Shown here: positions 1 to 62,139 of the stretch, one piece after another
Layout: the number at the start of each line of letters is the position of its first letter
How positions within the stretch are numbered: position 1 is the stretch's first letter
Virus record (IMG/VR): IMGVR_UViG_3300023179_000110
Location: 1-62,139 of that record
Source: a virus
DNA: 62,139 nt
Reading direction: 5' to 3' (one strand)
The notes under the pieces: generated by a model
Databases searched by the model: none
Seen by the model: the letters and a program-made list of their open reading frames with translations, nothing else
Told to the model about the DNA's origin: nothing
Made by a program: the position numbers and the translations under genes

Positions 1-950
1 CGGAACCTGAGTCCAGAGCAGGTGCTTGTAGCCACACACAGCCACCCCAATCGGCTTGACGCAAATGATGGTAGTGACCAGTCACAAGAATGTCAGAATT
101 GCCTATGTGCTGTTTACCGCCAGCCATCTTGTTGTACCAAGCATGCAATTTGGACTCAGCCGTACCACCTGAACGAGCGACATGCCCATGGGTCAAACCA
201 AGAATCCAACCAGCAATTTCCACCGTAATTGTTAAATGGTCTTTCGGCAGTACAAACTCAACATGTCCGTACGCCTCTTTATTTGACGCTAAAATTTCAG
301 CAACTTGTTCCACCACAGCCAAATCATCGTTATCACCAAAAGTTGTAAACGCTTTTCCAGCACCACCACGATTTTCGCCATGGTTGCCAGCAACTGCCAC
401 CACAACCACTTTGTCAAACAATTTTGACCAGCGAATTAAGGAATCACGCAACAATCTACGGGTCAATTTAACTTGGTCACGCCTGTCTAGTTCGGTGGTG
501 AATGTCTGCATCTCATAATGCCCCACACAGCCCTCTACGCTGTCACCAGTCCACAAAACAAACAAAGTACCTAGTGGGCGACCTATCTTACGCAATTCCT
601 TTACACGGGCTTCTACAGCGTCTATGCCTTGCAAAACCCTGTGAACTGTGCCGTTCGTGCCTTCTTTACCAATTTGCCAATCTGCAAGAACTACACAAAA
701 AGCCCCATCGCCAACGGGTAATTTTTTGGCAGGTTTGTGTTTTTTGATTTCATCAATTAATTCGCTAATGTCCACTCGTTCATGTTGAACTCGGCGGATA
801 ATTTTGGCTTTCCATTGCCTAAAAAGTTGTGGACCCTCAGCCGTGGCACCATGCCAAGCGTTGAATAAAACAGGCTCTACCACCTGATACTCGTCAGGAT
901 TTAACTCAAAAACGGATAATACGGCACCCCACTCAGGGGCATCAGTCCCA
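1..950. repeat. Terminal duplication, copy A
   Basis: This stretch matches 61190-62139 base for base except for 20 substitutions by my manual comparison, with no gaps. The offset between copies is 61189 bases. It is the overlap of a circular or circularly permuted genome, sampled from two closely related variants. All 20 differences lie in one reading frame and are synonymous, so it does not look like sequencing noise or a functional terminal repeat. Confidence 0.93.
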
Positions 951-1096
951 GCAATCGGGTCAGTCGTGACTGTTCCAGCACTACCATCCCAAGTTATTCC
1001 AGAACGCCACTCAGCATCTTTTTTACGGGTCGGCTCCATTGTTTTGCCATTTTCAACTGGCTCCAACAACTGCTGAATGTCGTCATCAAGATTCAC
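1..1096 (-). CDS. Metallophosphoesterase, N-terminal part (cut by window start)
   Basis: The gene starts with GTG at 1096, whose GTGA overlaps the TGA of the upstream HTH gene, and runs open to base 1; the rest is at 61092-61190. The joined product is 397 residues. Calcineurin-like phosphoesterase motifs are visible in order: ADWQ (metal-binding Asp), TGDSVEG, GNHGENRG, LTHGH and TGHYHH. The family hydrolyses phosphomono- or diesters with two metal ions; the substrate is unknown here. About 107 residues precede the catalytic domain. The gene lies at the end of the head operon and leads into the DUF6378-like gene, so a DNA or nucleotide-processing role is possible but not shown. Confidence 0.88.
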   Translation of the reverse strand, partial: MNLDDDIQQLLEPVENGKTMEPTRKKDAEWRSGITWDGSAGTVTTDPIAGTDAPEWGAVLSVFELNPDEYQVVEPVLFNAWHGATAEGPQLFRQWKAKIIRRVQHERVDISELIDEIKKHKPAKKLPVGDGAFCVVLADWQIGKEGTNGTVHRVLQGIDAVEARVKELRKIGRPLGTLFVLWTGDSVEGCVGHYEMQTFTTELDRRDQVKLTRRLLRDSLIRWSKLFDKVVVVAVAGNHGENRGGAGKAFTTFGDNDDLAVVEQVAEILASNKEAYGHVEFVLPKDHLTITVEIAGWILGLTHGHVARSGGTAESKLHAWYNKMAGGKQHIGNSDILVTGHYHHLRQADWGGCVWLQAPALDSGS

Positions 1097-1461
1097 TTAG
1101 GGCACCTGCACCCTGAACCGCTTTTAAACCGTTTACGATGACGCAAAATGCTTTGATACGAAATGGTAAATCCGTGACGAGCCATCATTTCAGAAATTTT
1201 AGTGGCTTGAACTGACGAATTATCAAAAATTGCTGACAATTTTTCTTGTTGGTCAGCAGGGATTCGCTCCAAAACCCAAGCAACTTTACATTGTGAAGGT
1301 GGACGAAAATCCAAATTCATTAAATTTTCAATGTCGTCACTGAGCGTTATTGGCTTTGCATCTTGAACATCTGATGCTCCAAGGTCGGGTGACTTTGAGG
1401 GCAAGAATTCTGTTGCATCGCCAACACCTTGGGAGTTCGTCTGTTTTGATACCCCTGCCAT
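1093..1461 (-). CDS. Helix-turn-helix protein, phage conserved
   Basis: This 122-residue protein has a disordered Ser/Thr/Asp-rich N-terminus (about residues 1-45), then a compact helical region around KVAWVLERIP and ISEMMARHGFTIS, and a basic end with RHRKRF and CRC. The pattern resembles a family of small actinophage DNA-binding proteins that end in RHR...C.C and often lie near terminase or head genes. It could be an auxiliary packaging or regulatory protein. A separate terminase small subunit is encoded at 42868-43392, so a direct TerS role is less likely. Its stop codon overlaps the phosphoesterase start. Confidence 0.6.
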   Translation of the reverse strand: MAGVSKQTNSQGVGDATEFLPSKSPDLGASDVQDAKPITLSDDIENLMNLDFRPPSQCKVAWVLERIPADQQEKLSAIFDNSSVQATKISEMMARHGFTISYQSILRHRKRFKSGSGCRCPK

Positions 1462-1482
1462 AAGCGTCTGGTTTCCCTTCGG

Positions 1483-1716
1483 TCACTGTGGTGGCTCCCA
1501 TTGCAAGTCGCAATCTAAGCACAAGGACACTTTTCTTCCACCCATCATTTCAAAATTTTGTATTGAATTATGGGAACAAGCACCTTCTGGCGTGTCGCTA
1601 TTTGCAACTTCAGTGGTGTTTTCAACCACAGAACTTACAAGAGCAAGTCTAATGGCTTGCAGTTGCATAATCGCTGAGTCAATAGCCTTGATAGAAGCCA
1701 ACTCTTTTGGGGTCAT
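1483..1716 (-). CDS. Small CxxC protein, unknown
   Basis: The ATG at 1716 overlaps the TGA of the upstream gene as ATGA, so this start is preferred over a longer frame reaching 1731. The 77-residue product has an N-terminal helix (MTPKELASIKAIDSAI) and a C-terminal ACSH...LCLDC arrangement that could bind one metal. Located between the tail-terminator-like protein and the HTH protein. No family recognised. Confidence 0.6.
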   Translation of the reverse strand: MTPKELASIKAIDSAIMQLQAIRLALVSSVVENTTEVANSDTPEGACSHNSIQNFEMMGGRKVSLCLDCDLQWEPPQ

Positions 1717-2108
1717 GACTGAATAATACACCTGAAGTTGGCACTAACATGGGGACGGTCATTTGTGTCATCACCCATAGGTAAAATTGAGCCAACAGGA
1801 GCAATTCTAAGCACTGTAATTCCTGACAAGGTGGTATTGGCTACTTGAGCCAACAAAAGCCGAATGGACTGTGCTGTGTCCCTTGCAGTGGGATAATCTT
1901 CGATGCCAGCCCGAACGATGATTTGAATAGCAGGATTGTCCAGCAAAACAGTTCCCATAGTGAAATCGGGAACCCCACCTTCGTTTTCATAAATACCAAT
2001 GCAGACATCAGGTTTATTTGGCATTTTGCCAAGAAAAATGTTAGTACCTAGCGTTCCGTAGCCCTGAGCCACAAGATAATCGCCAATAGCCTCAAGAATT
2101 GTACTCAT
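1713..2108 (-). CDS. Tail terminator / minor capsid-like protein
   Basis: The start is taken at 2108 (ATGA overlap with the preceding stop) and gives 131 residues. The pattern MSTILEAIGDYL, GKMPNKPDVCIGIYE, then IQIIVRA...YPTARDTAQSIR is typical of the small phage connector proteins annotated as minor capsid or tail terminator, which cap the tail tube and join it to the head. Gene order agrees: it follows the HK97-gp10-like and stopper-like genes. The assignment rests on pattern and position. Confidence 0.68.
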   Translation of the reverse strand: MSTILEAIGDYLVAQGYGTLGTNIFLGKMPNKPDVCIGIYENEGGVPDFTMGTVLLDNPAIQIIVRAGIEDYPTARDTAQSIRLLLAQVANTTLSGITVLRIAPVGSILPMGDDTNDRPHVSANFRCIIQS

Positions 2109-2509
2109 TTGCCAGCCCACAATCTACGCAACATGTCATTCATACGAATAGCAATGTTTTTCTGCAAGAACCTAGAACGCTCGTTTACAGGACGCTCCAA
2201 GTATTTACGCTGAGTTGGCTCAGTGTGTTTTGCAAAAGATTCGTGAACCCACATTGCATAACTGGCCGCAGGTCCACCATAACCAATGTCCTGATAACTG
2301 ACATCCCCAGAACGCTTGACTGGTGTTACATAACCAGAACCTTTTAAAACGCCCGTGGCAACTGGTACAAGCATTTGTGAACGAGCAAAAATTACTGCCG
2401 ATTCTTCAGCCAAAGCCATTTCAAAAATGTCCGTCAAGTAGGGTGGCGAGTTTTTTAGGGCAAATTTCAACTCATCTAACCCTTCCCATTCAATTCCAGT
2501 TTTAGCCAT
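2105..2509 (-). CDS. HK97 gp10-like neck protein
   Basis: This 134-residue protein contains VPVATGVLKGSG and ASYAMWVHE, the characteristic blocks of the HK97-gp10-like family of head-tail joining or tail-completion proteins. It lies between a stopper-like gene and a terminator-like gene, the usual connector order. Its TGA overlaps the next ATG, so translation is likely coupled. Confidence 0.75.
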   Translation of the reverse strand: MAKTGIEWEGLDELKFALKNSPPYLTDIFEMALAEESAVIFARSQMLVPVATGVLKGSGYVTPVKRSGDVSYQDIGYGGPAASYAMWVHESFAKHTEPTQRKYLERPVNERSRFLQKNIAIRMNDMLRRLWAGK

Positions 2510-2511
2510 GA

Positions 2512-2841
2512 TTATCTACCAAACCTAATAACTGCATGGTGATACACGGCAGTTTCATCAGAAATAACGGACACAGAAACAATTGGCGGAGTTGAACCAT
2601 CAGGCAACAGCAACTTAGAATCTACGGTTACGGTAGATACATCGTCAGCCGTTATGATGCGACCAGACGACAACACATCACGCCCATCTTTATCTTTGTT
2701 TAACTGCGTATCGTAAATAAGACGACATTTAAATTTTTTACCCGAACCCCTAGAACGCTTACCATAAGCATCAGTAGTTGTGTACGGATAGATGGTAACG
2801 GAATCAACCATTAACTCAACAAGTTCAGCATCAATAGCCAT
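2512..2841 (-). CDS. Head closure (stopper)-like protein
   Basis: A 109-residue, beta-rich protein with DSVTIYPYTTTDAYGKR near the N-terminus and ending in HHAVIRFGR. Size, beta content and position between the adaptor-like and gp10-like genes fit the head-closure protein that seals the portal vertex after packaging. No catalytic motif is visible. The start overlaps the previous stop by one base. Confidence 0.62.
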   Translation of the reverse strand: MAIDAELVELMVDSVTIYPYTTTDAYGKRSRGSGKKFKCRLIYDTQLNKDKDGRDVLSSGRIITADDVSTVTVDSKLLLPDGSTPPIVSVSVISDETAVYHHAVIRFGR

Positions 2842-3263
2842 TAGAACGACCTGTTATCAGTCATGCCTTCAAAGAAATCAGTCCTACGAGGGGAACTAAA
2901 ATCACGGTCAGAAGTAGCAAGCAAATTATTGCGAGCAACCACAGGAGTAGCAGGGAACAATCTAGCCCTTTGTTCAGCCAACTCATCGGACAATTTGGTG
3001 TATTCGTCAGCCTTAGCAGTGTAAGACTTAGAAATTGTTAAATCGCCAACAGTACGAGTAATGTGGTCAGCCTGACGGGTAAACTTGGCCGCAATTCGTT
3101 CAGCACAAGCCCTACCAGCCTCATACACATTGCCCCAAGTAGCCAACATGTAGGTGTACTCTTCATCCGACATCAACACATCAGTGCTGTCTGTATCCCA
3201 TAGCAAAAACCGAATCAAATCCAAATCAGAATTTGCTGGGTCGCCAGTGTAAGTAAAAGACAT
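2841..3263 (-). CDS. Head-tail connector adaptor-like protein
   Basis: This 140-residue, mostly helical protein begins with SFTYTGDPANSDLDLIRFLLWDTD, has a central helix around CAERIAAKF and a TVGDLTISKSY segment. This layout matches the phage head-tail adaptor (gp6/gp15-like) proteins encoded just after the capsid, which sit below the portal ring. The C-terminal 40 residues are basic and probably extended. Called by pattern and gene order. Confidence 0.65.
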   Translation of the reverse strand: MSFTYTGDPANSDLDLIRFLLWDTDSTDVLMSDEEYTYMLATWGNVYEAGRACAERIAAKFTRQADHITRTVGDLTISKSYTAKADEYTKLSDELAEQRARLFPATPVVARNNLLATSDRDFSSPRRTDFFEGMTDNRSF

Positions 3264-3284
3264 AATGACTCCTTAAAGTAAAAG

Positions 3285-3304
3285 AGCGACCCTTTCAGGT
3301 CGCT
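3285..3304 (-). terminator. Hairpin after the capsid-associated gene
   Basis: On the minus strand AGCGACC and GGTCGCT pair around a short loop, followed by CTTTTACTTT. It lies in the 45-base gap between the capsid-associated gene and the adaptor gene. It could attenuate transcription, giving more capsid than connector message, or protect mRNA ends. Confidence 0.5.
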
Positions 3305-3308
3305 ACTT

Positions 3309-3548
3309 CTACTCTACTTCTGTAGTAGGTTTGGCAACCTTTTTGGTTGCTGTAGTTTTTTTAGGCTCTTCAGCCTTGGCTTTTTGAGGTTCGTTCTGCT
3401 CCTGCTTGACGAGGAAGGAACTCAAGTACCGAGTAGCCACTAATTTGTGAGCATGTTTCCATGTTGACACCTCAACGATGTCGCCAATCTGGTAACGAGT
3501 TCCGTTCCCGTCAAACGGACGCAGTACCTCTCGGTACTGCTTAGTCAT
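3309..3548 (-). CDS. Capsid-associated small protein, Lys/Glu-rich tail
   Basis: ATG at 3548 (MTKQYREV), just inside the end of the capsid gene, gives 79 residues. The first 50 residues form a small beta domain (RYQIGDIVEVST...ATRYLSSFLV); the rest is a Lys/Glu/Thr-rich tail (KKTTATKKVAKP). Similar small proteins with a domain plus acidic or basic tail occur beside capsid and major tail genes; 58761-59000 has the same plan. Function unknown; possibly a head completion or decoration factor. Confidence 0.62.
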   Translation of the reverse strand: MTKQYREVLRPFDGNGTRYQIGDIVEVSTWKHAHKLVATRYLSSFLVKQEQNEPQKAKAEEPKKTTATKKVAKPTTEVE

Positions 3549-3549
3549 G

Positions 3550-4527
3550 TTATGCAACCACCGAAGCGAAGTAAACGCCTAGGTCAGCACCGATAACCTT
3601 GTTATCGAAAGCCATTTCAGCCTCAACACGGGTAGCCTTGATGCTTTCCATGCGGAACTGTGAAGTACCGATGGTCTGACCAAGACCGCCTGAAACACCA
3701 TTCCAAGCGAAGGTGTAACCAGCCGAAGGAGTTAGGAGGCCTGGGTTGGTAGCAACATGGCAAAGTAGAGCAGACTTACCAACATTGAACGCATAGGCAC
3801 CAGTGGCACCTTCGTTGTTGGTTGCCTTTACTGACTTAGCAACAAGCACACGGTCAACGCCAAACATACGAGCAATCATGTCTTCGGTGATGACATTTGA
3901 AGAGGTGTACTTGATACGGTCAACCAAATCAGGGTGATTCTTCAACTTACGGAATACCTGATAGCCAAGAACAAGAGTGTTTGCCTCAAAACCAGTGGTT
4001 GAAAGAATGGTTTCTTTTGCAAGTTCCATGTCTTCCAATGGGTCAGAGTTAGTGAAATCACTCCACTGAATGAACTGATTGGTAGTAGCATTTGAAGCAA
4101 CACCAGTTAGGTCGGTACCCCAAACACCAGTCTTGATGTAATCGGTAACAAACTGAATTTCCTTGCGAAGAAGCATACGATTTGTTACGAACTCAGCGGC
4201 CTCACGAAGAGGTGACAAAGGTGCGTCAGAGTTAGCGATGGTCTGGTCGCCGACATCCTTGTGGAATGCGAATACATCTGCACTGTAGGTATCAGTGTTC
4301 AGGCTGTAGCCAGAACCTGCTGATTCAGTAGCATCTGCACGGCGTTGTGCCTCATCACGGAACCAGTCGTTCTTGGTGTAAGTGAAGAACTTATTGCTCT
4401 TCTTATCTACAGGAACAACAGGGAAAACCTTGTCGGCAATGTAATTCTCAGCCTTCTGCATGTAAGCAACTGAGATGTTGGTGAGAATAGCGTCAATGTG
4501 AACGCTATTAATGGATGGCTGTGGCAT
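3550..4527 (-). CDS. Major capsid protein
   Basis: This 325-residue protein is the first large gene after scaffold and decoration proteins. It has an N-terminal helix (SINSVHIDAILTNISVAYMQ), ADKVFPVVPVDKKS, a central helical region rich in NRMLLRKEIQF, and a C-terminal FRMESIKATRVEAEMAFD stretch, all typical of HK97-fold capsid proteins of the large group seen in actinophages and environmental siphophages. It would form the icosahedral shell. I see no separate N-terminal delta domain, consistent with an independent scaffold at 4939-5706. Confidence 0.88.
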   Translation of the reverse strand: MPQPSINSVHIDAILTNISVAYMQKAENYIADKVFPVVPVDKKSNKFFTYTKNDWFRDEAQRRADATESAGSGYSLNTDTYSADVFAFHKDVGDQTIANSDAPLSPLREAAEFVTNRMLLRKEIQFVTDYIKTGVWGTDLTGVASNATTNQFIQWSDFTNSDPLEDMELAKETILSTTGFEANTLVLGYQVFRKLKNHPDLVDRIKYTSSNVITEDMIARMFGVDRVLVAKSVKATNNEGATGAYAFNVGKSALLCHVATNPGLLTPSAGYTFAWNGVSGGLGQTIGTSQFRMESIKATRVEAEMAFDNKVIGADLGVYFASVVA

Positions 4528-4540
4528 GTGTTAACTCCTC

Positions 4541-4933
4541 TTAGTTAGCCCGTGTAGCGTTGGCACAGTTGATAACGGCTGTAACAACATTTCCGTCTGC
4601 TCCAGAAGCAGTAATCAATGAACCGACAACATACTTGGTGGTATCTGTTGTGGTCAAAGCAACTGCTTTACCTGTAGCACCAGTACCGATTGCACTTGGA
4701 AGCGTGATTGAAGCACCAGCGACAACCTTGGTTCCACCTACAATTAGAACTTCTGCTTCTTGACCTGAAATTGGTGCGTTCTGAAGAACTCCAACAGGAA
4801 CATCGGTAGCGGCCGCAACGGCAATAGCCTGACCACTTGAATTCAACTTAACAAAGTTGTACTGCTTTGCGGAAAGGTCTTCACCTGCAACAAGTGTCAC
4901 CTTTACGCTGTAATTACTGAACTCGTATGCCAT
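4541..4933 (-). CDS. Head decoration protein (DUF2190-like)
   Basis: A 130-residue protein rich in Ala, Val, Thr and Gly with LVAGEDLSAKQYNFVKL, a PVGVLQNAP block and repeated short beta strands, ending AVINCANA. This is the pattern of DUF2190-type capsid decoration proteins, which sit on the outer shell. Position directly between scaffold and major capsid supports the call. Confidence 0.8.
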   Translation of the reverse strand: MAYEFSNYSVKVTLVAGEDLSAKQYNFVKLNSSGQAIAVAAATDVPVGVLQNAPISGQEAEVLIVGGTKVVAGASITLPSAIGTGATGKAVALTTTDTTKYVVGSLITASGADGNVVTAVINCANATRAN

Positions 4934-4938
4934 GGTAA

Positions 4939-5706
4939 TTAGGCACCTTTCTCGTTTAGGTACTGTGCGTACAGTGATGGTTCGGCAGATGCTACTTCAG
5001 CAAAAGCCTGTTCAAATGTGTTTGCTTCACCAGCAGAAACCATGGACTTAGCCATTGCTTCCATCTGAGAAAAAGCATTTCCCGTATTGGCTGAAGTGCG
5101 ACCAATTTCGGCAAAAATGTTTGCTGATTCAGCCTGAGAATTAACACTCTCAAGAACTGCTTCAACTGATTTTGCAAGAACAGCATCGGTTTCTGCCAAC
5201 TTACGAAGGGCAGGTCCAACATGTTCTGCGTCTAGTGAAAGGTGTGTCCATGAGCGAGCCTTAGCAACAGCCTCTGCATCTGCACGGGCATCACGCTCTG
5301 ACTTCAAAACGGCTTCAACTTCTTCAGCCTTAGCAACTGCTTCTTCCGCTTGCTTACGCAAAACTTCAAAAGCCTTCTGCACAGGCTCTGGGGCTGACTT
5401 AATTACTTCATCGGCTTCATCAGCAGGAGCCTTAACTTCTGCGTCAACCTCTGTTGCTTCCTCAAGTTCAGCAATTCTTTCTTCTGCCTTTTGAAGCAAA
5501 TCCATTGCTTCTTCAAGACGGTTTTCAATGGTTTCCGACATTGATTCCTCCTGTTTGATAACGGATGATTCAAGAATTTCACGAACAGCATCTGAATCGG
5601 CTGATTTCATAACTAGCCAACCATCATGCAAATGTGCAGGACGGTCAACTCCACTGGTTTCCTCAATGTCGAGATTAACCATCTTGCGAGTTGTGGTGCG
5701 AGCCAT
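4939..5706 (-). CDS. Capsid scaffolding protein
   Basis: Start chosen at 5706 (MARTTTRK), with AGAGG a few bases upstream; a longer frame begins at 5727. The 255-residue product has a short N-terminal segment (DIEETSGVDRPAHLHDGWLVMKS) like that in many actinophage scaffolds, then a long acidic coiled coil from about residue 40 to 140 (LLQKAEERIAELEEATE, KAEEVEAVLKSER), and a helical C-terminus. Scaffolds guide procapsid assembly and are lost or cleaved. The protease is probably the XkdF-like protein upstream. Confidence 0.82.
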   Translation of the reverse strand: MARTTTRKMVNLDIEETSGVDRPAHLHDGWLVMKSADSDAVREILESSVIKQEESMSETIENRLEEAMDLLQKAEERIAELEEATEVDAEVKAPADEADEVIKSAPEPVQKAFEVLRKQAEEAVAKAEEVEAVLKSERDARADAEAVAKARSWTHLSLDAEHVGPALRKLAETDAVLAKSVEAVLESVNSQAESANIFAEIGRTSANTGNAFSQMEAMAKSMVSAGEANTFEQAFAEVASAEPSLYAQYLNEKGA

Positions 5707-5809
5707 AACATCCTCTGTTCCGAACATGCAGGTTTAACTGCAAATCTTGACTTGCTCAAAATTAACACAAATCAATTACACTGAGGGTTCGACTTTCGGC
5801 GTGTCTTAT

Positions 5810-6004
5810 TTATCTACCTTGGTAAAAACCAGTGGTTGCACCAGTTGGATTAACTTTAGTAGCACCAGTAATTGTTCTTTTTGTGGCACCATTACCAATG
5901 CGTAAATTTAAAGTTGTTTGATTTGTAACCGCAGTAACAATCGCATGATACACACGACCAGATTCACGATAACGAACTGAAGTGCCAGCCTGAAAAACTT
6001 GCAT
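5810..6004 (-). CDS. Small beta-rich protein, unknown
   Basis: A 64-residue basic protein (VFQAGTSVRYRESGRVYHAIV...TLNLRIGNG) made of predicted short beta strands. Its ATG follows directly on the Dps-like gene stop. Small SH3-like beta proteins occur among head genes, but no function can be assigned. An 83-base gap follows before the scaffold frame, with no clear promoter or terminator. Confidence 0.55.
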   Translation of the reverse strand: MQVFQAGTSVRYRESGRVYHAIVTAVTNQTTLNLRIGNGATKRTITGATKVNPTGATTGFYQGR

Positions 6005-6501
6005 TACATCCCCAAACTAGAACGAAGTTGCCAATCCCATTTTTTATGCATGTCAATGCGTTCAGCAAGAAAATTTGCAATTCCTTGCTCATTAGATGAG
6101 TTTGCAGAAGCGAAAGCCATGTTTAATGTGTTAATAAGTTGAAGGTTTGCCTTCTGCAAATCTGATGCCATGGAACGGGGGTCATCAGCAGAACCAATGG
6201 TGGTTTCTGGCAGGGTTCGGTAAGCAATAAAATCTGACAACTTAAATGGTGCATCAACGCCAAGTTTCAACATGTTTTCAGCCATAGGGTCAATTGAACT
6301 GTAAACATCTTCATAAATAGATTCAAAAAGTTCGTGGTATTGAGCAAAATCCGAACCTTTAACATTCCAATGAAAGCCATGAGCACGAGTGTAAAAAGTG
6401 ACAACATCAGCCAAGGCTGTACGCAATAACGAGGCAACATCGCCAACGGCTTTATTCATCGCTCCAAAAGGAACATAATCACTATCGTTAGTCAGAAACA
6501 T
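6004..6501 (-). CDS. Dps-like ferritin (DNA protection / iron storage)
   Basis: This 165-residue protein carries the Dps ferroxidase signature: THxxHWNVKG is represented by AHGFHWNVKG (about residues 41-50), followed by the second His in QYHELF, then SIDPMAENMLKLG, giving the His, His, Asp and Glu ligands. The C-terminal helix (FLAERIDMHKKWDWQL) also matches. Dps proteins form 12-mers that oxidise and store iron and protect DNA from peroxide. Finding it inside the head operon, between prohead protease and scaffold, is unusual and suggests a role at or in the virion, or protection of phage DNA in the infected cell. It overlaps the protease gene by 14 bases. Confidence 0.88.
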   Translation of the reverse strand: MFLTNDSDYVPFGAMNKAVGDVASLLRTALADVVTFYTRAHGFHWNVKGSDFAQYHELFESIYEDVYSSIDPMAENMLKLGVDAPFKLSDFIAYRTLPETTIGSADDPRSMASDLQKANLQLINTLNMAFASANSSNEQGIANFLAERIDMHKKWDWQLRSSLGM

Positions 6502-7267
6502 CTTCGTCAGACACCTTTACATCTTTTTTGGGCTTCTTCTTTTGCCCACCCATAACAGTATCCACATGAACAGTGTTCACTGTAGGACCCGACACGGTAG
6601 ATGAACTGTCTTCTTTAGCAACTGGCAAATCAACTTCAAGACGCTGGGCACGACCACCAATCGAATAACCCATCAACTTTCCAGCCTTGACCATTTCCCA
6701 AGCCCAAGGTTCCCAAACAACGCCAAGGAAAACTGTGTCTTTAGGAAAAGTTACATCTTCCATGGTTCCGTCAGATTTCTGCATGGGAACTGATACTTCG
6801 TAAGGCCACGCCATTACTTCAACCCATTCACCAGCAACGATGTCTTTATTGTGCTGTAAACGAATACGGCGGTCATCTTTACGCACATAATCCCAAACTG
6901 ATTTCTGCAACTCAGCAGAATCTGTCCATTCACCATGAGCATCAACACGGTCAGGAACATACATTGGACCTAGGGTGTATCGGTTTTCGTTGACAGCCTT
7001 GGAAACCAAAGACATTTTTTTAACTGGTGTTTCGATAAATTGGTCAAAAAATCCTTCGCTGTAGGAATCCTCAATGTCATAGTCGGCATCGCCCCATTCA
7101 GCAGGAATAGCCATAGCAATGTCGTAATTTTTTAAAGATTGATAAGTTTCTACAAGGTCATTGTAAATTTTTTTTGTTTCTTCGTTAGAAACATACTTAC
7201 TATTAGACGCTTCAATTCCTGCACAAACTTCCTGCGTCATTAAATCAATAATGCGAGCATCAATCAT
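6488..7267 (-). CDS. XkdF-like prohead protease
   Basis: This 259-residue protein matches the XkdF family of putative phage serine peptidases: GPMYVPDRVDAHGEW, the basic QHN segment, EVMAWPYEV, FPKDTVFLGVVWEPWAWE and GKLMGYSIGGRA appear in the expected order. Such proteins mature the capsid by cutting scaffold and other internal proteins. It is the first gene after the tagged accessory block and before scaffold and capsid. The Lys-rich C-terminus (GGQKKKPKKDVKV) may contact DNA or other head proteins. Confidence 0.82.
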   Translation of the reverse strand: MIDARIIDLMTQEVCAGIEASNSKYVSNEETKKIYNDLVETYQSLKNYDIAMAIPAEWGDADYDIEDSYSEGFFDQFIETPVKKMSLVSKAVNENRYTLGPMYVPDRVDAHGEWTDSAELQKSVWDYVRKDDRRIRLQHNKDIVAGEWVEVMAWPYEVSVPMQKSDGTMEDVTFPKDTVFLGVVWEPWAWEMVKAGKLMGYSIGGRAQRLEVDLPVAKEDSSSTVSGPTVNTVHVDTVMGGQKKKPKKDVKVSDEDVSD

Positions 7268-9327
7268 TATTTAACTCCCCCTTTCTTAGTTGATGCAATC
7301 AAAACTGGCGGTGCCCCTTCGGGGCGAGTGTCATGATTTGTGTCGAATAACACAAAATTATCAAACTCTTTTGACATCTTTGGCATTATTGAAGACACAG
7401 ATTTGTGATTAGCCAAAAAATTATTTGCTGGAACTAATCCACGATTAGGGTCTTCAATCGCCCTTTGCATGTTTTGTTTCCAAGCCAAATCAATACTTGC
7501 ACTTACATAACAACCGTTAACTTTGTATCCAGCGTTTCTCGCTTTAGCAATTTTTTTGCCCAAACTGGCTTCACTTGAATTTCCAGTTCCATCTAAGAAA
7601 ATGTCCATGCCAGCCTTGGTAGCGGCCGCATCAATTGCTTTACCCAAATCAGATGATTCTTCGTGCGTCCAACCTGCAACATCCAATTTTCTGCCATTGT
7701 CAACAAATACTTGAAAATCTGGCAATTTTGCTTTTAACTCATCCGCATCAATAATAACAGCCTTGCCTTTTTCTGGCAAAATTACACCATGTTCTTTGGC
7801 TAACTCAAGGGCTTGTTGATTCCTTCTAATCGTTCCTTTTCCAGAACCGCCACCGCCACCCATCATGGTAAAAGTTGGGTCACTAGAACGAGGAATTCCT
7901 TTTAAGGCTTCTTTAATAATTTCGGCGTGTAAAGCCTCACGCTCAGGAGTGTAAATGTAATTACCATTTCCATCGTCCATCAAATAATGCCAAAGACCAG
8001 TTGTGTCAGCCGAAATTTCCTCGCCTTTGTATGTAATAGTGCGAGGTTTCGCCAAAACTTCTGGACGATTGCTTCCGTAACCCCAATCGTAGGTTTCAGG
8101 GTCAAAAGATTCGTTTCTTTTAACCTCAACTACATTTTGAGTTTTTAAAAATTCAGCCCATCGGTTATTTAAATCAGAAACAGTTGTTCTATCAACTGAT
8201 TTATTAATAAAATTTTGCCAAGCAGTGCTGTCGTGAATTTCAAGACCGTCAGCAAAGTTTTCACTTGCACCGCCATGTGCCCAGTTTCCGTGCGTTTTTT
8301 GGTCGTGATGTCCATGTTTCAACAATGGAACCGTGCTTAACTGAGGTATTACTGGGTCAACTAAAAGACGGCGATACCTGCGTTTTGCACCATTTAAAGC
8401 ATCAAAAAATCCTGCGTCTGTAACAATTTGGTCAGCATAAACTGGGCTGGTTGACCAATGCTGATTTTTACGGAATTCGTCTAACAATCCATGCAATTCT
8501 TCATGTCGTTTCATGACAGCAGGAATGGCAAAAGGGTTTGAATTCGTGCGTTTTAACTCAAGTCCTTGACCGTAGCCCTCGTTGTAAGACAACCGAATAG
8601 ATTTTTTACTTAAAGTTTTGCCAATCATTTGAAAATCAGAAGCACTTACAGAAGAGCCATGTGCCCAATCGCCGTGAGTTGATTGGTCGTGTTTGCCTTG
8701 CATGTGCTTAGACATGCCATTTAACAAATCTTCAGGAATCACCCAGAACTTGCACAAAGCCATGTGGTCAATTTGACCTTCAACAATCTCACAACCGCCA
8801 CCGCCTTCATAAAAAATGCAGTTGGCACACATCAAACCTTCATCAACAAACGGGTTATCTTCCATGTAATGTGCCCCGTTAGCATCTGAACTCTGATTAA
8901 ATTTGCCAACCGCTTCGGTTAAAGATTCCAAAAACTCGTAAATAGCATTTTGCGTGGGGTTTAATCTATCTTCGGGTTCGCCCTCTTTTTTAACGGTATC
9001 AAACTTTAGGGTGTAGCCATCAACCGTCAAAATAGTGGTTTTTGAAACTAAATCGGGATAACCCAACTCAGCATTGACCGTATCAACTACATCAGCAGGA
9101 ATTCCGTTAAAAGCCTTATTTACGGGGACATTGTTTTCAACGCCTACCTCAATAACAGCCCGATTCCATTCGTCCCCACTATGCCCATGGTCTAAACCAC
9201 GAACCAACAATTCCGTTGTAACAAGGTGGTGGGCTTGAACTTTTACGGGGTCATAAACATCCGCATGCAATGATTTATGCAATTCCTCTAATTGAGCATT
9301 GCTTAATTTGTTTAAATCAAATGACAT
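7267..9327 (-). CDS. Tagged multidomain protein with zeta-toxin-like kinase
   Basis: In 686 residues I see an N-terminal helical part, a four-Cys cluster (CANC...GGGGC...ALCKFW, about residues 168-198), two copies of the His/Asp tag (about 206-224 and 336-351), and a C-terminal P-loop kinase from about 480. The kinase has GGGGSGKGT (Walker A), VIIDADELK, THEESSDL and an Arg-containing lid, the layout of zeta toxins, which phosphorylate UDP-sugar cell-wall precursors, although relatives use other substrates. The region between the second tag and kinase has no family I know. It is the last and most 3' member of the accessory block, next to the prohead protease. Confidence 0.8.
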   Translation of the reverse strand: MSFDLNKLSNAQLEELHKSLHADVYDPVKVQAHHLVTTELLVRGLDHGHSGDEWNRAVIEVGVENNVPVNKAFNGIPADVVDTVNAELGYPDLVSKTTILTVDGYTLKFDTVKKEGEPEDRLNPTQNAIYEFLESLTEAVGKFNQSSDANGAHYMEDNPFVDEGLMCANCIFYEGGGGCEIVEGQIDHMALCKFWVIPEDLLNGMSKHMQGKHDQSTHGDWAHGSSVSASDFQMIGKTLSKKSIRLSYNEGYGQGLELKRTNSNPFAIPAVMKRHEELHGLLDEFRKNQHWSTSPVYADQIVTDAGFFDALNGAKRRYRRLLVDPVIPQLSTVPLLKHGHHDQKTHGNWAHGGASENFADGLEIHDSTAWQNFINKSVDRTTVSDLNNRWAEFLKTQNVVEVKRNESFDPETYDWGYGSNRPEVLAKPRTITYKGEEISADTTGLWHYLMDDGNGNYIYTPEREALHAEIIKEALKGIPRSSDPTFTMMGGGGGSGKGTIRRNQQALELAKEHGVILPEKGKAVIIDADELKAKLPDFQVFVDNGRKLDVAGWTHEESSDLGKAIDAAATKAGMDIFLDGTGNSSEASLGKKIAKARNAGYKVNGCYVSASIDLAWKQNMQRAIEDPNRGLVPANNFLANHKSVSSIMPKMSKEFDNFVLFDTNHDTRPEGAPPVLIASTKKGGVK

Positions 9328-9364
9328 TTGAACTCCTCACCGAAAGAATAGCAAACAAGGTTGA

Positions 9365-9436
9365 CTATTGAGGTTCCATCGGCTCAGGCAATTTTCTTGG
9401 GTCAATAATGTCCACTATTTCGTCTTTTTCGGTCAT
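9365..9436 (-). CDS. Acidic micro-ORF, 23 residues
   Basis: ATG at 9436 overlaps the TGA of the metallopeptidase gene as ATGA, and the frame ends with TAG at 9365. The peptide starts MTEKDEIVDII and is acidic and Pro-rich at its end (KLPEPMEPQ). It fills most of the gap before the zeta-like gene. Coupled overlap is its main support; no function known. Confidence 0.4.
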   Translation of the reverse strand: MTEKDEIVDIIDPRKLPEPMEPQ

Positions 9437-10224
9437 ACTGGTATTCCTTTGTCTAAATAACCCTGTCTTAAATTATCAGCAACTTCTTTACCTGCCACAT
9501 GCTCCCAAATAAATAATTGATTACGAGCAAATTCAACTCCGTGACCTTCGTATTTATTATCCGCTTTTAACATGGTTGCATAGTGAGCAAGTTCATGAAT
9601 TAAGGTTGATTCATCTTTTGCATAATTTTTGTGAATCAAAATTTCATTAATTTCTTGATAACCTTTACTGCCACTTATTTTTATGCCCCAGCGATGCCTA
9701 CCAGCAAAACTGCCAGACTTTCTTACTGCTATTTTTAACTCAGGAACACGAGAACCATCGCCAAATTCAGCAATAAACCAATCACTGCTGGTAATTTCTT
9801 TGTAAAGATTTTTAATACCTTTTACTGTTCCATCAATGTGTTTTTTACCTAATTCTGAAACTTGTAAATCGTTTGCTGAAGACTGCCAATCGTCAAAATT
9901 TTTACTGTATTGCGTCCACGCCTTTTCGTATGCCTCATAAGAATCAAAATTTTCTCGTTTGGGTGCAACTGGAGGAGTTCCACTATCACGGTCAAATACT
10001 TCAGATTCAGCCTTGTAAATGTCACTTTGATAACGGTCTGAACCCAATTGCAAATCAACTCTGTCCCGAAAAACCAAATTACTACCAGAATCATTGACAG
10101 TTATGTCGTTGTTAGCCCAGTTGCCATGAGTCCTTTGGTCATGTTTGCCAGCAAGATGCTTGAAAACATTATTATTTTCTTCATCTATTAAAAACAAAGA
10201 CATTCTTTCTTTTAATTCACTCAT
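9433..10224 (-). CDS. Tagged HExxH metallopeptidase-like protein
   Basis: This 263-residue protein has one His/Asp tag (about residues 22-38) and a zincin-type motif LIHELAHYATM near residue 208, preceded by strand EINEILIHKNY. HExxH binds zinc with two His and uses Glu as base; a third ligand may be in the following GHGVEFARN segment. Middle residues are hydrophilic and helical. The start ATG overlaps the previous stop. Target unknown. Its position in a head-operon accessory block suggests an injected or virion-associated protease rather than a housekeeping one. Confidence 0.75.
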   Translation of the reverse strand: MSELKERMSLFLIDEENNNVFKHLAGKHDQRTHGNWANNDITVNDSGSNLVFRDRVDLQLGSDRYQSDIYKAESEVFDRDSGTPPVAPKRENFDSYEAYEKAWTQYSKNFDDWQSSANDLQVSELGKKHIDGTVKGIKNLYKEITSSDWFIAEFGDGSRVPELKIAVRKSGSFAGRHRWGIKISGSKGYQEINEILIHKNYAKDESTLIHELAHYATMLKADNKYEGHGVEFARNQLFIWEHVAGKEVADNLRQGYLDKGIPV

Positions 10225-11090
10225 TTAATAAAAACGCCTTCTTCTTCTGTATTAAAATTTTTTGATGCAACAATTAACGGGTCATAAGGCAACTGATTTT
10301 GAATCACTGTTACTTCATAAAAATTATCGTTGATTTTTTCAACTTTTGAAACCGTGTATGTACCAGAAGCAATAACTTCATTGCCGTTTGACACTTCTTC
10401 GCTTTTATTGCTTGTATGTGGAACTAATGGTATTCCACGCAATCCATCAATTTTCATTAAAATGGATGTTTCTGCTGGGTTGCCATAATAATCTTTTGCA
10501 AAAGTTGTTGCCAGTTCTTCATCAGGAGTCCAAGATGCAATTCCTTCTTTAAATGTGGAACCAACCGTTGTTAATTTTTTAACTTGTTCAGAACCCCATT
10601 TACTGAAAGACAAACCTCTGTACATTTTTTCATTTAATGGTTTAGCGGTTGTCAAGGCTAAAAGAATTTGTTTAGTTGAATCAAAAATTTCTTTGTAGTC
10701 AACATCTCTTCTTATTTTGCCATCTTCATCTAATTTTGGATAATAATTGTCTGAAACATTAGTTAATACTCTGTAAGCACTACGAATGTTGTCAACATTG
10801 GCGTATGGGTATTTATTTGTTCCGCCTATCCAAGCATCAGCAAAAGCATTAATCATTGGAATTTGAGAATTATCAGCCCAGTTGCCGTGAGTTGACTGGT
10901 CGTGCTGACCTGCAAGATGTTTTTGAATTTTTTGCGTATCAAGCCAATCTAAAACATCCCCATTGGTCAAAGTAATAATTGAACTCAAAGACACTTTGCG
11001 ACCATCAGCCAATTGAAGCATGGTTTCAGGGGTCAATTCTCCGTCCCAAGACCAAGAACCGCCAAAATCAGGTGCAAGCAACTTAAACAT
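10221..11090 (-). CDS. Tagged ADP-ribosyltransferase-like protein
   Basis: I place the start at 11090 because the N-terminus (MFKLLAPDFGGSWSWDGEL) then aligns with the small paralogue at 15129-15314. The 289-residue protein has this N-terminal domain, a tag at about residues 56-71, and a C-terminal R-S-E type ADP-ribosyltransferase pattern: MYRGLSFS (Arg, near 155), IASWTPDEE (the Ser-Thr strand), and NGNEVIASGTY (the acidic loop). Such enzymes transfer ADP-ribose from NAD to target proteins. The EVI block lacks a clear ExE, so activity needs testing. Both ends overlap neighbours. Confidence 0.72.
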   Translation of the reverse strand: MFKLLAPDFGGSWSWDGELTPETMLQLADGRKVSLSSIITLTNGDVLDWLDTQKIQKHLAGQHDQSTHGNWADNSQIPMINAFADAWIGGTNKYPYANVDNIRSAYRVLTNVSDNYYPKLDEDGKIRRDVDYKEIFDSTKQILLALTTAKPLNEKMYRGLSFSKWGSEQVKKLTTVGSTFKEGIASWTPDEELATTFAKDYYGNPAETSILMKIDGLRGIPLVPHTSNKSEEVSNGNEVIASGTYTVSKVEKINDNFYEVTVIQNQLPYDPLIVASKNFNTEEEGVFIK

Positions 11091-14000
11091 AGTAACCCTT
11101 TTCAATGTGTTCCCCGACAACAACTTCAATGCCTTTGCCAGCCAACATTTCCTTAGTAGCCTTAGTCAAACTTGTTGATTTTGGAATAACAATTGTGGCA
11201 ACATCATCCAACGATAAACCGCCATGAATTTGAGTTTCAACATAACCGTAAGTAGCAATTTCTCTTAAATCAGCCTTGCCACTGTATCCAGTTATTCCAC
11301 CCCACTCTGGTTTTCCAGTACTAATGCTGTTTTTCCAATTGTAAGTTTTGCCAGAACGATTTGAATTGTTAAAAGTGTTAATTAATAAGCCAAAATGAGT
11401 GTCCCATAAATCATTTACAGAAACTTTGCCATTAGCGTAATCTTCCAGCCAATGAGTTCCATTAAGAAATCCGTCTAAAGAATCGCCAATTGTTGCTGTT
11501 GTTCTATGTTTTACCGAATCTTTAAAAATTACTTGGGCATCGCCATAAGTTGATTCTTTAGAACTGCGTCCTATGACTCCGTAAACGGGACGCTTATCGT
11601 TAGGTGTTTCGCTCGGAATGCCCATAATGTCAAATTCAAATTCATTTCTTCTTTCCATGTATTTTTGCCTAGTAGCCCCTTTTCCAGACAAAGTGGTTTC
11701 ACTAGCAGTTCGATAATGGTCTTCAGTTATGAATTTTTTTAATTTACCTGTACTCATGGTTAAAGAAACATCATTATTATTTGCAATTTCTTGCATTTGG
11801 TCTAACAAACTTTGAGCCACGCCATCTATGACTTCGCCAACAGTTTGCCCACTTGGAAATTTAATTTGACGAATTTTATTTTGAACAAATTTATTTTCCG
11901 CAACAAGATAAGCCCGTGCTGATTGAAAATCTTGTTCAGCCCAAACATTTATGGCTTTTCTTCTCAACTCATCAATGTTTGAATCAGAAAATTCTTTGTT
12001 TTGTTCAATAATTTGTTTTGCCCACCAAGTATTTGCAATAGCCGTATCCATAAATTTTTTAGGGATTTGAGGATAATTTGGGTCGTTAAAAATGGTTTTT
12101 GTCAATTTTTTTATTGCGTCTAAACCCGAAAAATTTTCGGAACTTTTGGATGAATTTTTTAATGCTAAAACCGCATAATAAAATTCTGCTGTGGAAACAG
12201 GTGTTCCAACCCAACTTGTAGAATCTGTTTGCAAAATTCTTGCAATAGGTCCGAAACTGTTAGCAACATCTTCTTCATAAGACATAGCAGGAATTGAAGA
12301 AAAACTTTTTTTTCGCCCTGAAAAATCTAACTCATAAGGTCTGTCGGTTGAATGACCGTGTGCCCAGTTGCCATGACTGGACTGGTCGTGTTGTCCTGCA
12401 AAATGTTTAAAAAAAAACGAATTTACTGGAACCTTGACAATTACTGAGGTTTTGGCAACTTCTTGTAAATCTGTTCCGCCCAAGTCATAATTTCCTCGTC
12501 CGTCATCTCGTTTAACGGCTTCGGCGACTGAGCGATGTTGATTATTTCTTTTTTCGACTGTTCCACCAGTACCTCCTGTTTGAATCTCATCAAAGTTGAC
12601 GACATCCCAAATACTGATTTGGTTACGCCTTCTACCTAACGAAATTGCTTGTTTCTTGTCAACGATTTTGTCCGTAACATCCAAATGAACTCGTTGCTGG
12701 TCTTTTGGTATTTCTACCGTAACACCATTAACCGTTTTGGTTGTTTCGTGCCAAACACCGAGATAAGCACGACCAGAACCTAATTCTGCTTTGTTCTTAA
12801 CCAAGAACGCACCCAGAATTTTGGCTCCTTTATCCTCATTAAAGAAGTCTGATGCCATTACAACGGTGCCGAACTTGTCACTGTTTCGAGATACCATGTA
12901 GCCATCTGGGGGCAGTGAGCCGTCCGTTAACTTGATTGATAAACCACCATTTTCGGCTACTTGACTCAAAACATCATGAACAACTTCTGGTGCAACATGG
13001 CTGTTGAACCTGCGTCCGTGAGTTGATTGGTCGTGTTGACCTTGAAGGTGTTTCTCAACCTCGGTTGATTTAATCTTAGCCCGTAATACCGCAATGTCAA
13101 ATGCCAACATTTTCTTCATGTTTTCTTTATTTGACTCACCAAGAGCAATTGGCTTAATTCCAACGGTTTTATTCCAAGCCAAAACAACTTTAATTAATTC
13201 GTCATGAGGCAAATCAACTTTTAAAGCCTTCATTTTCACATTTTTATGTTTTGGTTTTAAACCAAGAAACAAAGCGGCCGCCCAGCGATGGTGTCCGTCA
13301 ATCACATAATCATCTTTAGAAATAGTAATTGGAGTATCACCAACTCCATCTTTTTCCATTGACCGCATAATTTTTCCAGATTTAGAAGCAGAAATTTCAG
13401 CCTGAATTGGGTGTAGTCCAAAGGGAGCAACATCAACCATTTCAACTTTAACTCCACGGTCTTGCATAGCCTTAATAAAATCATTTTGAGTTCCAGCAGG
13501 AATTTGAGGCATTTTGTCACGCATAATTCCAAGATTGTCCCTTGTGAAATACTGCGTTCCTAAAATTTCCAAATTAGTTAAATCGGGATTATCTTTGCGG
13601 TCAGCCATTGCATCCAACCATGCTGGAGCGTCAATTGGGCTAACAATACCTTCTTCGCCAGCAACTACTTTGTCGTAAGCGGTTTGAACTGGATGTGGAT
13701 ACGGATTGCCTTCGGCAGTGTTTTTACGGTCAACAGCATGTCCGTGATGTCCAGCCCAGTTGCCATGCGTGGCTTGGTCGTGCTGACCTGATAAATGTTT
13801 TTGAACTGCTTGCGGATAGTAAGACCATTCGTACAAAGAATTGCCATCAGTGTAAATTTCATTAGCGTGAACTGTGGTGTGCAAAATGTCGTAATCACCA
13901 AAACGAGCAGTCACACTACTTTCGCCATGTAATTTGGCGTATTCTTCGGAAATAGTAACCCAATCACCAGCATTAACTTTAGTAACGCCTTTGGGTACAG

Positions 14001-14361
14001 CACGATAAATGGTCACATGAGCATCGGGTTTATTACGAATACTTACAAGCAAATCATGGATTTTTTTATCTTCAGCCCTATTACTGCCACCGTGCCCATA
14101 AATTCTGGCACCATCAGAATCATAAACATCTTTTGGGTAAATGTTTCCATTGCCAGTTAAATCGTATGCAGGGGCACCATCTTCGGGTTCTGGAGGACGG
14201 TGACTCATTTGATAATCAGTTTCATTGTTGGCACCGCCATGTGCCCAATCGCCGTGTGAACTCTGGTCGTGTTGTCCTGCAAGATGTTTTTCAACTTTCA
14301 CACCATGTTTAACACCCAAATCGGGGTAAACCACATCAAAAGTCACATCATCTAAAATCAT
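11083..14361 (-). CDS. Four-module tagged protein: ART-like, ParB-like, unknown, DUF3626-like
   Basis: This 1092-residue protein contains four tags (about residues 24-41, 187-203, 436-450, 651-667), each opening a module. Module 1 has VTIYRAVPKGVTKVNAGDWV and ends TDGNSLYEWSYYP, an ART-like fold found in phage proteins. Module 2 has a ParB-like core with YVIDGHHRWAAALFLG. Module 3 (DGYMVSRNSDKFGTV...RVHLDVTD) is unrecognised. Module 4 has GDAQVIFKDSVKHRTTATIGDSLDG and VETQIHGGLSLDDV, shared with 15311-16843 and 19724-23113 and resembling DUF3626. It looks like a concatenation of units elsewhere encoded singly. The tag of module 3 is divergent (HGRRFN for HGNWAH). Confidence 0.75.
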   Translation of the reverse strand: MILDDVTFDVVYPDLGVKHGVKVEKHLAGQHDQSSHGDWAHGGANNETDYQMSHRPPEPEDGAPAYDLTGNGNIYPKDVYDSDGARIYGHGGSNRAEDKKIHDLLVSIRNKPDAHVTIYRAVPKGVTKVNAGDWVTISEEYAKLHGESSVTARFGDYDILHTTVHANEIYTDGNSLYEWSYYPQAVQKHLSGQHDQATHGNWAGHHGHAVDRKNTAEGNPYPHPVQTAYDKVVAGEEGIVSPIDAPAWLDAMADRKDNPDLTNLEILGTQYFTRDNLGIMRDKMPQIPAGTQNDFIKAMQDRGVKVEMVDVAPFGLHPIQAEISASKSGKIMRSMEKDGVGDTPITISKDDYVIDGHHRWAAALFLGLKPKHKNVKMKALKVDLPHDELIKVVLAWNKTVGIKPIALGESNKENMKKMLAFDIAVLRAKIKSTEVEKHLQGQHDQSTHGRRFNSHVAPEVVHDVLSQVAENGGLSIKLTDGSLPPDGYMVSRNSDKFGTVVMASDFFNEDKGAKILGAFLVKNKAELGSGRAYLGVWHETTKTVNGVTVEIPKDQQRVHLDVTDKIVDKKQAISLGRRRNQISIWDVVNFDEIQTGGTGGTVEKRNNQHRSVAEAVKRDDGRGNYDLGGTDLQEVAKTSVIVKVPVNSFFFKHFAGQHDQSSHGNWAHGHSTDRPYELDFSGRKKSFSSIPAMSYEEDVANSFGPIARILQTDSTSWVGTPVSTAEFYYAVLALKNSSKSSENFSGLDAIKKLTKTIFNDPNYPQIPKKFMDTAIANTWWAKQIIEQNKEFSDSNIDELRRKAINVWAEQDFQSARAYLVAENKFVQNKIRQIKFPSGQTVGEVIDGVAQSLLDQMQEIANNNDVSLTMSTGKLKKFITEDHYRTASETTLSGKGATRQKYMERRNEFEFDIMGIPSETPNDKRPVYGVIGRSSKESTYGDAQVIFKDSVKHRTTATIGDSLDGFLNGTHWLEDYANGKVSVNDLWDTHFGLLINTFNNSNRSGKTYNWKNSISTGKPEWGGITGYSGKADLREIATYGYVETQIHGGLSLDDVATIVIPKSTSLTKATKEMLAGKGIEVVVGEHIEKGYYV

Positions 14362-16843: not shown

Positions 16844-16849
16844 ACTAAA

Positions 16850-19721: not shown

Positions 19722-19723
19722 AA

Positions 19724-60783: not shown

Positions 60784-60812
60784 ATCCTATCACACCTTTG
60801 GTTTAGTTTTTG
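60784..60812 (-). promoter_or_regulatory. Early-type promoter, shared spacer motif (copy 8)
   Basis: Minus strand: CAAAAA, CTAAACCAAAGGTGTGA (17 bases), TAGGAT. It overlaps the last codons of the DUF6378-like gene and precedes the leader of the gene at 60568-60756. Confidence 0.78.
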
Positions 60813-61095
60813 CCATTTCCCGTTCAGCCCGTTCCTCACGAACCATGGCTAAAGTTAAAAAGTATCCAATGCCATCAATTATGGTGTCGGATTTTGGTTT
60901 GTGAACTTCACGAGCAATTTTTACCCCAATCATGCACAAGGCAACTTGTTCAGCACTGACAGGAATCCCCAAAATGGACTCCCAAATTAACCCAGCACGA
61001 GAAAAATCGTCTAGTGGATGCCCGTACTCATCGTTTCTATCCCCACTAACCAGACTGGCCGCATACGAGGCAATGTCATTGGGATGTTGCATCAC
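60790..61095 (-). CDS. DUF6378-like protein
   Basis: 101 residues: SLVSGDRNDEYGHPLDDFSR, VSAEQVALCMIGVKIAREVH, then KSDTIIDGIGYFLTLAMV. The DRNDEYGHPLDDF and D..iDgiGY blocks match DUF6378, a phage family resembling MazG-type nucleotide pyrophosphohydrolases in helix layout; activity is unproven. Its start overlaps the phosphoesterase stop by four bases. Confidence 0.72.
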   Translation of the reverse strand: MMQHPNDIASYAASLVSGDRNDEYGHPLDDFSRAGLIWESILGIPVSAEQVALCMIGVKIAREVHKPKSDTIIDGIGYFLTLAMVREERAEREMAKTKPKV

Positions 61096-62139
61096 AAAAC
61101 CTCCAAATCAGCAACTCGCTTGTCGGGATACACCGCAAATGTCAAAATTCCAGCATCTGAGTATTCGCCCGACACCAAACGCCACCATTCGGAACCTGAG
61201 TCCAGAGCAGGTGCTTGTAGCCACACACAGCCACCCCAATCGGCTTGACGCAAATGATGGTAGTGACCAGTCACAAGAATGTCAGAATTGCCTATGTGCT
61301 GTTTACCGCCAGCCATTTTGTTGTACCAAGCATGCAATTTGGACTCAGCCGTACCACCTGAACGAGCGACATGCCCGTGGGTCAAACCAAGAATCCAACC
61401 AGCAATTTCCACCGTAATTGTTAAATGGTCTTTCGGCAGTACAAACTCAACATGTCCGTAAGCCTCTTTATTTGACGCTAAAATTTCAGCAACTTGTTCC
61501 ACTACAGCCAAATCATCGTTATCACCAAAAGTTGTAAACGCTTTTCCAGCACCACCACGATTTTCGCCATGGTTGCCAGCAACTGCCACTACAACCACTT
61601 TGTCAAACAATTTTGACCAGCGAATCAGGGAATCACGCAACAATCTACGAGTTAATTTAACTTGGTCACGCCTGTCTAATTCGGTGGTGAATGTCTGCAT
61701 CTCATAATGCCCCACACAGCCCTCTACGCTGTCACCAGTCCACAAAACAAACAAGGTACCTAGTGGGCGACCTATCTTACGCAATTCCTTTACACGGGCT
61801 TCTACAGCGTCTATGCCTTGCAAAACCCTGTGGACTGTGCCGTTTGTGCCTTCTTTACCAATTTGCCAATCTGCAAGAACTACACAAAAAGCCCCATCGC
61901 CAACGGGTAATTTTTTGGCAGGTTTGTGTTTTTTGATTTCATCAATTAATTCGCTAATGTCCACCCGTTCATGTTGAACTCGGCGGATAATTTTGGCTTT
62001 CCATTGCCTAAAAAGTTGTGGACCTTCAGCCGTAGCACCATGCCAAGCGTTAAATAAAACAGGCTCTACTACTTGATACTCGTCAGGATTTAACTCAAAA
62101 ACGGATAATACGGCACCCCATTCAGGGGCATCAGTCCCA
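61092..62139 (-). CDS. Metallophosphoesterase (cut by window end)
   Basis: This is the other copy of the gene at 1-1096, here with the complete C-terminus and stop at 61092 but the 5' end missing beyond 62139. A GTG at 61964 is an internal Val codon, not the start, because the frame continues open upstream and joins the left copy. Motifs ADWQ, TGDSVEG, GNHGENRG and TGHYHH are all present. The encoded protein is the same as in the left copy over the shared part, although 20 bases differ. Confidence 0.9.
   Translation of the reverse strand, partial: GTDAPEWGAVLSVFELNPDEYQVVEPVLFNAWHGATAEGPQLFRQWKAKIIRRVQHERVDISELIDEIKKHKPAKKLPVGDGAFCVVLADWQIGKEGTNGTVHRVLQGIDAVEARVKELRKIGRPLGTLFVLWTGDSVEGCVGHYEMQTFTTELDRRDQVKLTRRLLRDSLIRWSKLFDKVVVVAVAGNHGENRGGAGKAFTTFGDNDDLAVVEQVAEILASNKEAYGHVEFVLPKDHLTITVEIAGWILGLTHGHVARSGGTAESKLHAWYNKMAGGKQHIGNSDILVTGHYHHLRQADWGGCVWLQAPALDSGSEWWRLVSGEYSDAGILTFAVYPDKRVADLEVL
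61190..62139. repeat. Terminal duplication, copy B
   Basis: Second version of bases 1-950 (offset 61189), differing at 20 sites by my comparison, for example left positions 128, 188, 272, 314, 401, 437, 439, 461, 464 and 490. Removing one copy closes the circle at 61189 bp. Confidence 0.93.

What the first reader, a model, noticed from the sequence alone, without database searches (positions are those of the whole stretch)
1..950. Circle closure shows two strains: 20 differences, all synonymous
The 950-base ends match with 20 substitutions. Eighteen fall at third codon positions of the phosphoesterase frame; the other two (439, with 437, and 490) are first-position Leu changes (TTA to CTG, CTA to TTA). 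No amino acid changes. This points to co-existing wild variants and strong purifying selection on the phosphoesterase, and proves the reading frame.
Basis: seen in the sequence. Interest (0 to 1): 0.6.

Follow-up and report, generated by a model that had tools for sequence, protein, structure and literature searches.

The report
Two phage strains overlap at contig ends
The two ends of this phage contig are the same stretch of one gene read from two closely related strains, which shows that the assembled genome closes into a loop and that the gene tolerates silent changes only; this is an ordinary result of assembling mixed wild phage populations.

Summary
Confirmed: bases 1-950 and 61190-62139 match end to end with 20 substitutions and no gaps. 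All 20 are synonymous in the minus-strand phosphoesterase frame (18 third positions, 2 first positions of Leu codons; 19 transitions, 1 transversion).

The overlap is best read as an assembly closure, not a duplication or a diverged terminal repeat. In 11 of 53 related loci the gene is whole and flanked by homologues of both window ends. The first 127 bases of the copies are identical, the first difference is at 128, and every later identical run is at most 119; at word length 127 the copies share exactly one word. That is what a de Bruijn assembler leaves when it closes a circle (1-61189) and then runs 823 bases into a second strain. One relative has an exact 127-base end repeat.

Zero of 20 amino-acid changes is strong purifying selection, but usual for this gene: the nearest pair of relatives shows 29 synonymous and 1 nonsynonymous change.

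Not excluded: a physical terminal repeat (two isolated phages with related capsids have exact 952-base ones, in other genes), or a terminal-redundancy heterozygote. Deciding needs reads.

The parts
1..950 (.). Left copy of the end overlap (strain A)
   Evidence: Ungapped match to 61190-62139, 20 substitutions
61190..62139 (.). Right copy of the end overlap
   Evidence: Ungapped match to 1-950
1..127 (.). Exact closing word, left copy
   Evidence: Identical to 61190-61316; the only 127-mer shared in register by the two copies
61190..61316 (.). Exact closing word, right copy
   Evidence: Identical to 1-127
61317..62139 (.). Inferred branch into the second strain (B), 823 bases, with all 20 differences
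   Evidence: First difference at 61317 = 128; no later identical run over 119
2..1096 (-). Phosphoesterase gene, start and most of the body (3' end cut by the contig end)
   Evidence: Open frame of 365 aa; PHROG 284 exonuclease, E=6e-52; metal-site residues invariant in 14 aligned relatives
61092..62138 (-). Second copy of the same gene, with its 3' end and stop codon (5' end cut by the contig end)
   Evidence: Open frame of 348 aa, no amino-acid difference from the left copy over the overlap
1093..1461 (-). Neighbour upstream of the gene; marks one side of the closure
   Evidence: Its homologue precedes the whole gene in relatives
60790..61095 (-). Neighbour downstream of the gene (DUF6378); marks the other side of the closure
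   Evidence: Its homologue follows the whole gene in relatives; Pfam DUF6378 E=7.9e-20

Best explanation
The window is a tailed-phage genome of about 61,189 bases whose assembly closes on itself inside a phosphoesterase gene. Shown: bases 1-127 equal 61190-61316 exactly, relatives carry the gene whole between homologues of the two window ends, and all 20 later differences are silent. Inferred: a de Bruijn assembler with word length 127 went once round the genome of strain A, returned to its starting word, and there took a second exit made by a closely related strain B, which it followed for 823 bases until coverage or the path ended. The two strains descend from a common ancestor with silent changes on both branches, under purifying selection on the enzyme.
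For: 20 silent differences of 20, no indels. Both flanks around a whole gene in 11 of 53 related loci. One shared 127-mer only; shared words at k of 119 or less, none at 129 or more. Exact end repeats of 127, 123 and 117 bases in 3 of 11 related records. CheckV's authors attribute end repeats of k-mer length to circular templates (PMC8116208, passages). Changes polarise to both sides: 8 to A, 5 to B, 7 undecided. Same pattern between relatives L003 and L004: 29 silent, 1 not.
Against: The assembler and k of this record are not known to me. G002, a close relative, has 126 identical bases and then 3 differences in a 151-base overlap, which does not fit k=127. Seven of 11 related records show no end overlap. 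Why the branch stops 18 bases after its last difference is unexplained.
Confidence: 0.88

Rival explanations
1. The phage has a physical direct terminal repeat of about 950 bases in linear virion DNA, and the contig ends are its true termini; the differences come from two strains contributing the two ends.
For: Arthrobacter phages Kharcho and Ottawa, with capsid proteins 61% identical to the window's, have exact end repeats of 952 bases, nearly the same length.
Against: Their repeat covers the stopper gene and the next, which map to about 2.1-2.8 kb of the window and not to 1-950, and 4 of 6 related isolates checked (Laroye, Kovu, ValentiniPuff, Waltz) show no end repeat. It leaves the 127-base boundary to chance (0.04% by simulation).
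Confidence: 0.06
2. Terminal-redundancy heterozygote: headful packaging from a mixed-infection concatemer gave virions with allele A at one end and allele B at the other.
For: Not excluded by sequence; about 1.6% redundancy is plausible for headful packaging (general knowledge). An Erf-like annealing protein is encoded.
Against: Such ends would be spread over the genome and not at one place, and a short-read assembly would not show them; the 127-base boundary is left to chance.
Confidence: 0.02
3. A real second copy of the gene (tandem or dispersed duplication) in one genome.
For: Two copies are present in the record.
Against: Each copy is cut by a contig end, and G001, G002, G003 and G007 have a single copy in this place.
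Confidence: 0.02
4. Sequencing or assembly errors near the contig ends.
For: Errors gather at contig ends (general knowledge).
Against: 20 of 20 silent has a chance of about 3e-10, there are no indels, and alleles of both copies occur in relatives.
Confidence: 0.005

Closest known systems
k-mer-length end repeats of circular viral contigs (CheckV paper, PMC8116208; passages seen)
   Same: Exact repeat of an odd word length (127) at the two ends, break at an arbitrary place in a gene
   Different: Here the exact repeat is followed by 823 bases of a second strain, so an exact end-to-end test misses it; 127 is not among the lengths the passage names (55, 77, 99)
Microdiversity in wild viral populations (e.g. 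PMC6832022; listing and start of abstract seen)
   Same: Closely related co-existing variants with a deficit of amino-acid changes
   Different: Seen here from one contig without reads, for one gene only
Physical 952-base end repeats of Arthrobacter phages Kharcho and Ottawa
   Same: Related capsid protein, similar repeat length, same general region after the capsid gene
   Different: Copies exact, different genes, and the phosphoesterase was not found in the Kharcho stretches searched (1-14000 and 50000-63572)
Phage calcineurin-like phosphoesterase/exonuclease (PHROG 284)
   Same: E=6e-52; 29-31% identity over nearly full length to Streptomyces phage proteins annotated exonuclease, metallophosphoesterase or MRE11; D139, Q141, D185, E188, N238, H239, H303, H305, H341, H343 invariant in 14 aligned sequences
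   Different: Pfam Metallophos_2 scores under its cut-off (17.4 against 27); no solved relative at E 0.01

Membership tests
Closed assembly of a circular or terminally redundant template | Exact repeat of assembler word length at the two ends | tested here: met
   1-127 = 61190-61316; exactly one shared 127-mer. That k was 127 is inferred.
Closed assembly of a circular or terminally redundant template | Both ends neighbours in related genomes | tested here: met
   11 of 53 loci with both flanks, 5 with the upstream flank only, 37 with neither
Two co-existing strains | Differences follow codon constraint and fall on both branches | tested here: met
   20 of 20 silent; 8 sites to A, 5 to B, 7 undecided
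Two co-existing strains | Phased reads of both variants in one sample | not testable with these tools
   No reads available
Physical direct terminal repeat | Identical copies at fixed termini | tested here: not met
   20 differences; homologous termini not at this place in Kharcho or Ottawa
Physical direct terminal repeat | Doubled read depth and read ends piled at the termini | not testable with these tools
   No reads available
Calcineurin-like phosphoesterase | Metal-site residues conserved | tested here: met
   DxQ, GDxxE, GNHxE, HGH and HxH invariant in 14 aligned sequences (motif meaning recalled)
Calcineurin-like phosphoesterase | Pfam score above the curated cut-off | tested here: not met
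   Metallophos_2 17.4 bits, cut-off 27; PHROG 284 E=6e-52

The most novel reading that the evidence does not exclude
The phage packs linear DNA with a physical terminal redundancy of about 950 bases inside the phosphoesterase gene, and single virions are heterozygous for it, so that one particle carries two silent-variant alleles of one gene.
Probability: 0.03. Interest if true: 0.45.

Novelty: already known. Interest (0 to 1): 0.12.

Why it matters
Mainly practical. The record looks like a complete genome whose closure an exact whole-overlap test would miss; its unique length is about 61,189, not 62,139, and its last 823 bases should not be counted as strain A. It is also a small, clean example of silent variation within a wild phage population, and it suggests a sequence-only signature (first mismatch at k+1, no later shared word) that could find other closed genomes hidden by strain mixture.

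Tried and rejected
Rejected: gene duplication (one copy in this place in the four long relatives); sequencing error (all changes silent); one-way hypermutation (changes fall on both branches).

Tried without result: near-identical records in the phage collection for window 1-12000 (none); exact patterns from shared stretches in viral contigs (none); relatives of the phosphoesterase in bacterial genomes (14 pattern matches, none confirmed); a paper stating the word lengths of the source pipeline (0 papers); solved-structure relatives (none). No structure was predicted, because the question turned on the overlap and not on the enzyme.

Dropped rows: one search lists matches over 250 bases only. 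In one search the comparisons of A with L005, L007, L008 and L010 have saturated synonymous distance and give no ratio. Of 204 gene pairs, the 54 with synonymous distance 0.03-0.30 were pooled; the 35 genes were my choice among the larger ORFs, and pairs share genomes, so they are not independent. My first polarity table ignored a one-codon gap and was wrong; one search replaces it. The alignment used 14 sequences: the window and 13 of the 53 loci.

Full report
Observation. The two ends of the window match over 950 bases without gaps, with 20 substitutions, and the match runs to both contig ends. In the minus-strand phosphoesterase frame all 20 are silent: 18 at third positions and 2 at first positions of leucine codons, 19 transitions and 1 transversion. 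No other frame is free of stops or of amino-acid changes. For 19 random transitions and 1 random transversion, all being silent has a probability of about 3e-10.

Closure. The left copy lacks the gene's end and the right copy lacks its start. Of 53 related loci from viral contigs, 11 carry the gene with the homologue of window 1093-1461 before it and that of 60790-61095 after it (L003-L010, L012, L048, L054); 5 show only the first flank (L011, L023, L036, L052, L055); 37 show neither. Relatives G001, G002, G003 and G007 align along the window, two of them reversed, and their own ends fall at other places of the map. So the two window ends are neighbours in this group of phages.

How the overlap arose. 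The identical runs between differences are 127, 59, 83, 41, 86, 35, 1, 21, 2, 25, 75, 77, 11, 119, 59, 8, 17, 17, 2, 47 and 18. At word length 127 the two copies share exactly one word, the first; at 119 or below they share further words and would re-merge; at 129 or above they share none. With 20 differences placed at random, the first run is the longest in 4.7% of trials, and is both longest and equal to 127 in 0.04%. Of 11 related records whose ends were compared, 3 have exact end repeats (G001 127, G010 123, G011 117), G002 has 151 bases with 3 differences at 127, 129 and 131, and 7 have none. The G002 case does not fit k=127 exactly. CheckV's paper says that end repeats of k-mer length appear when a circular template is assembled (PMC8116208, passages seen; it names 55, 77 and 99, not 127). 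I therefore read the contig as one round of strain A (1-61189), its closing word (61190-61316), and an 823-base branch of strain B (61317-62139). Why the branch ends 18 bases after its last difference is not explained.

Two strains, not one changed copy. Compared with three near relatives (L003, L004, L048), 8 sites look changed on the A side, 5 on the B side and 7 are undecided. Synonymous distance to those relatives is 1.4-1.6, near saturation, so single calls are weak, but change on both sides argues against damage or one-way mutation.

Selection. Between A and B dS is 0.099 and dN is 0. With 20 changes, omega above about 0.047 is rejected at 5%. Pairs of relatives for the same gene give omega 0.009 (L003/L004: 29 silent, 1 not), 0.024, 0.036, 0.056 and 0.023 and 0.037 (G002/G007). 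Pooled over 54 gene pairs with dS 0.03-0.30, omega is 0.118, and at that rate the chance of 0 in 20 is 0.001. By median omega against three relatives the gene is 7th most constrained of 35. So the constraint is strong, but expected for this gene. Microdiversity and purifying selection in viral populations are already in print (e.g. PMC6832022; listing and start of abstract seen).

The gene and genome. The protein matches PHROG 284, 'exonuclease' (E=6e-52); Pfam's Metallophos_2 is below its cut-off. The residues expected of calcineurin-like enzymes are invariant in 14 aligned sequences (motif meaning recalled). The genome encodes a major head protein, portal and MuF-like proteins, a terminase large subunit and an Erf-like annealing protein. 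Its capsid protein is up to 61% identical to those of Arthrobacter phages, so an actinobacterial host is plausible but not shown.

Rivals. Kharcho and Ottawa have exact 952-base end repeats, a notable coincidence with 950. Their repeat carries the stopper gene and the next; these of Kharcho map to about 2.1-2.8 kb of the window, and Laroye, Kovu, ValentiniPuff and Waltz show no end repeat. A physical repeat would also be expected to have two identical copies (general knowledge) and does not explain the 127-base boundary. It is kept at 6%; a terminal-redundancy heterozygote at 2%.

Verdict. Real, correctly described, correctly interpreted in the main, and ordinary.

Noticed in passing
window 10221-23113 (-): A block of large, partly repetitive ORFs between MuF/portal and the zeta-toxin-like ORF, with weak hits to DRAT ADP-ribosyltransferase (18516-19721, above cut-off), ATLF-type metalloprotease (16850-18529, below cut-off) and DUF3626 (below cut-off), sharing 55-140 base repeats. 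Possibly virion-borne effectors (inference).
   Followed up: no
window 7267-9327 (-): A 686-aa ORF with a C-terminal zeta-toxin-like kinase domain (Pfam E=3.6e-20) matching a PHROG called minor head protein.
   Followed up: no
window 2-1096 and 1093-4527 (-): Synonymous distance to the near relatives jumps from 0.27-0.31 in the capsid gene to 1.4-1.6 in the phosphoesterase, which suggests gene exchange with a more distant lineage.
   Followed up: no
L086 1-952 and the last 952 bases of L085 (Kharcho); also L088 and L089 (Ottawa): Exact 952-base end repeat duplicates the head-to-tail stopper gene and its neighbour in the deposited records.
   Followed up: partly
L060 1-151 and last 151 bases of L063 (G002): Near-repeat at the ends of a relative with 3 differences at 127, 129 and 131, inside the repetitive ORF block; its origin is not settled.
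   Followed up: partly
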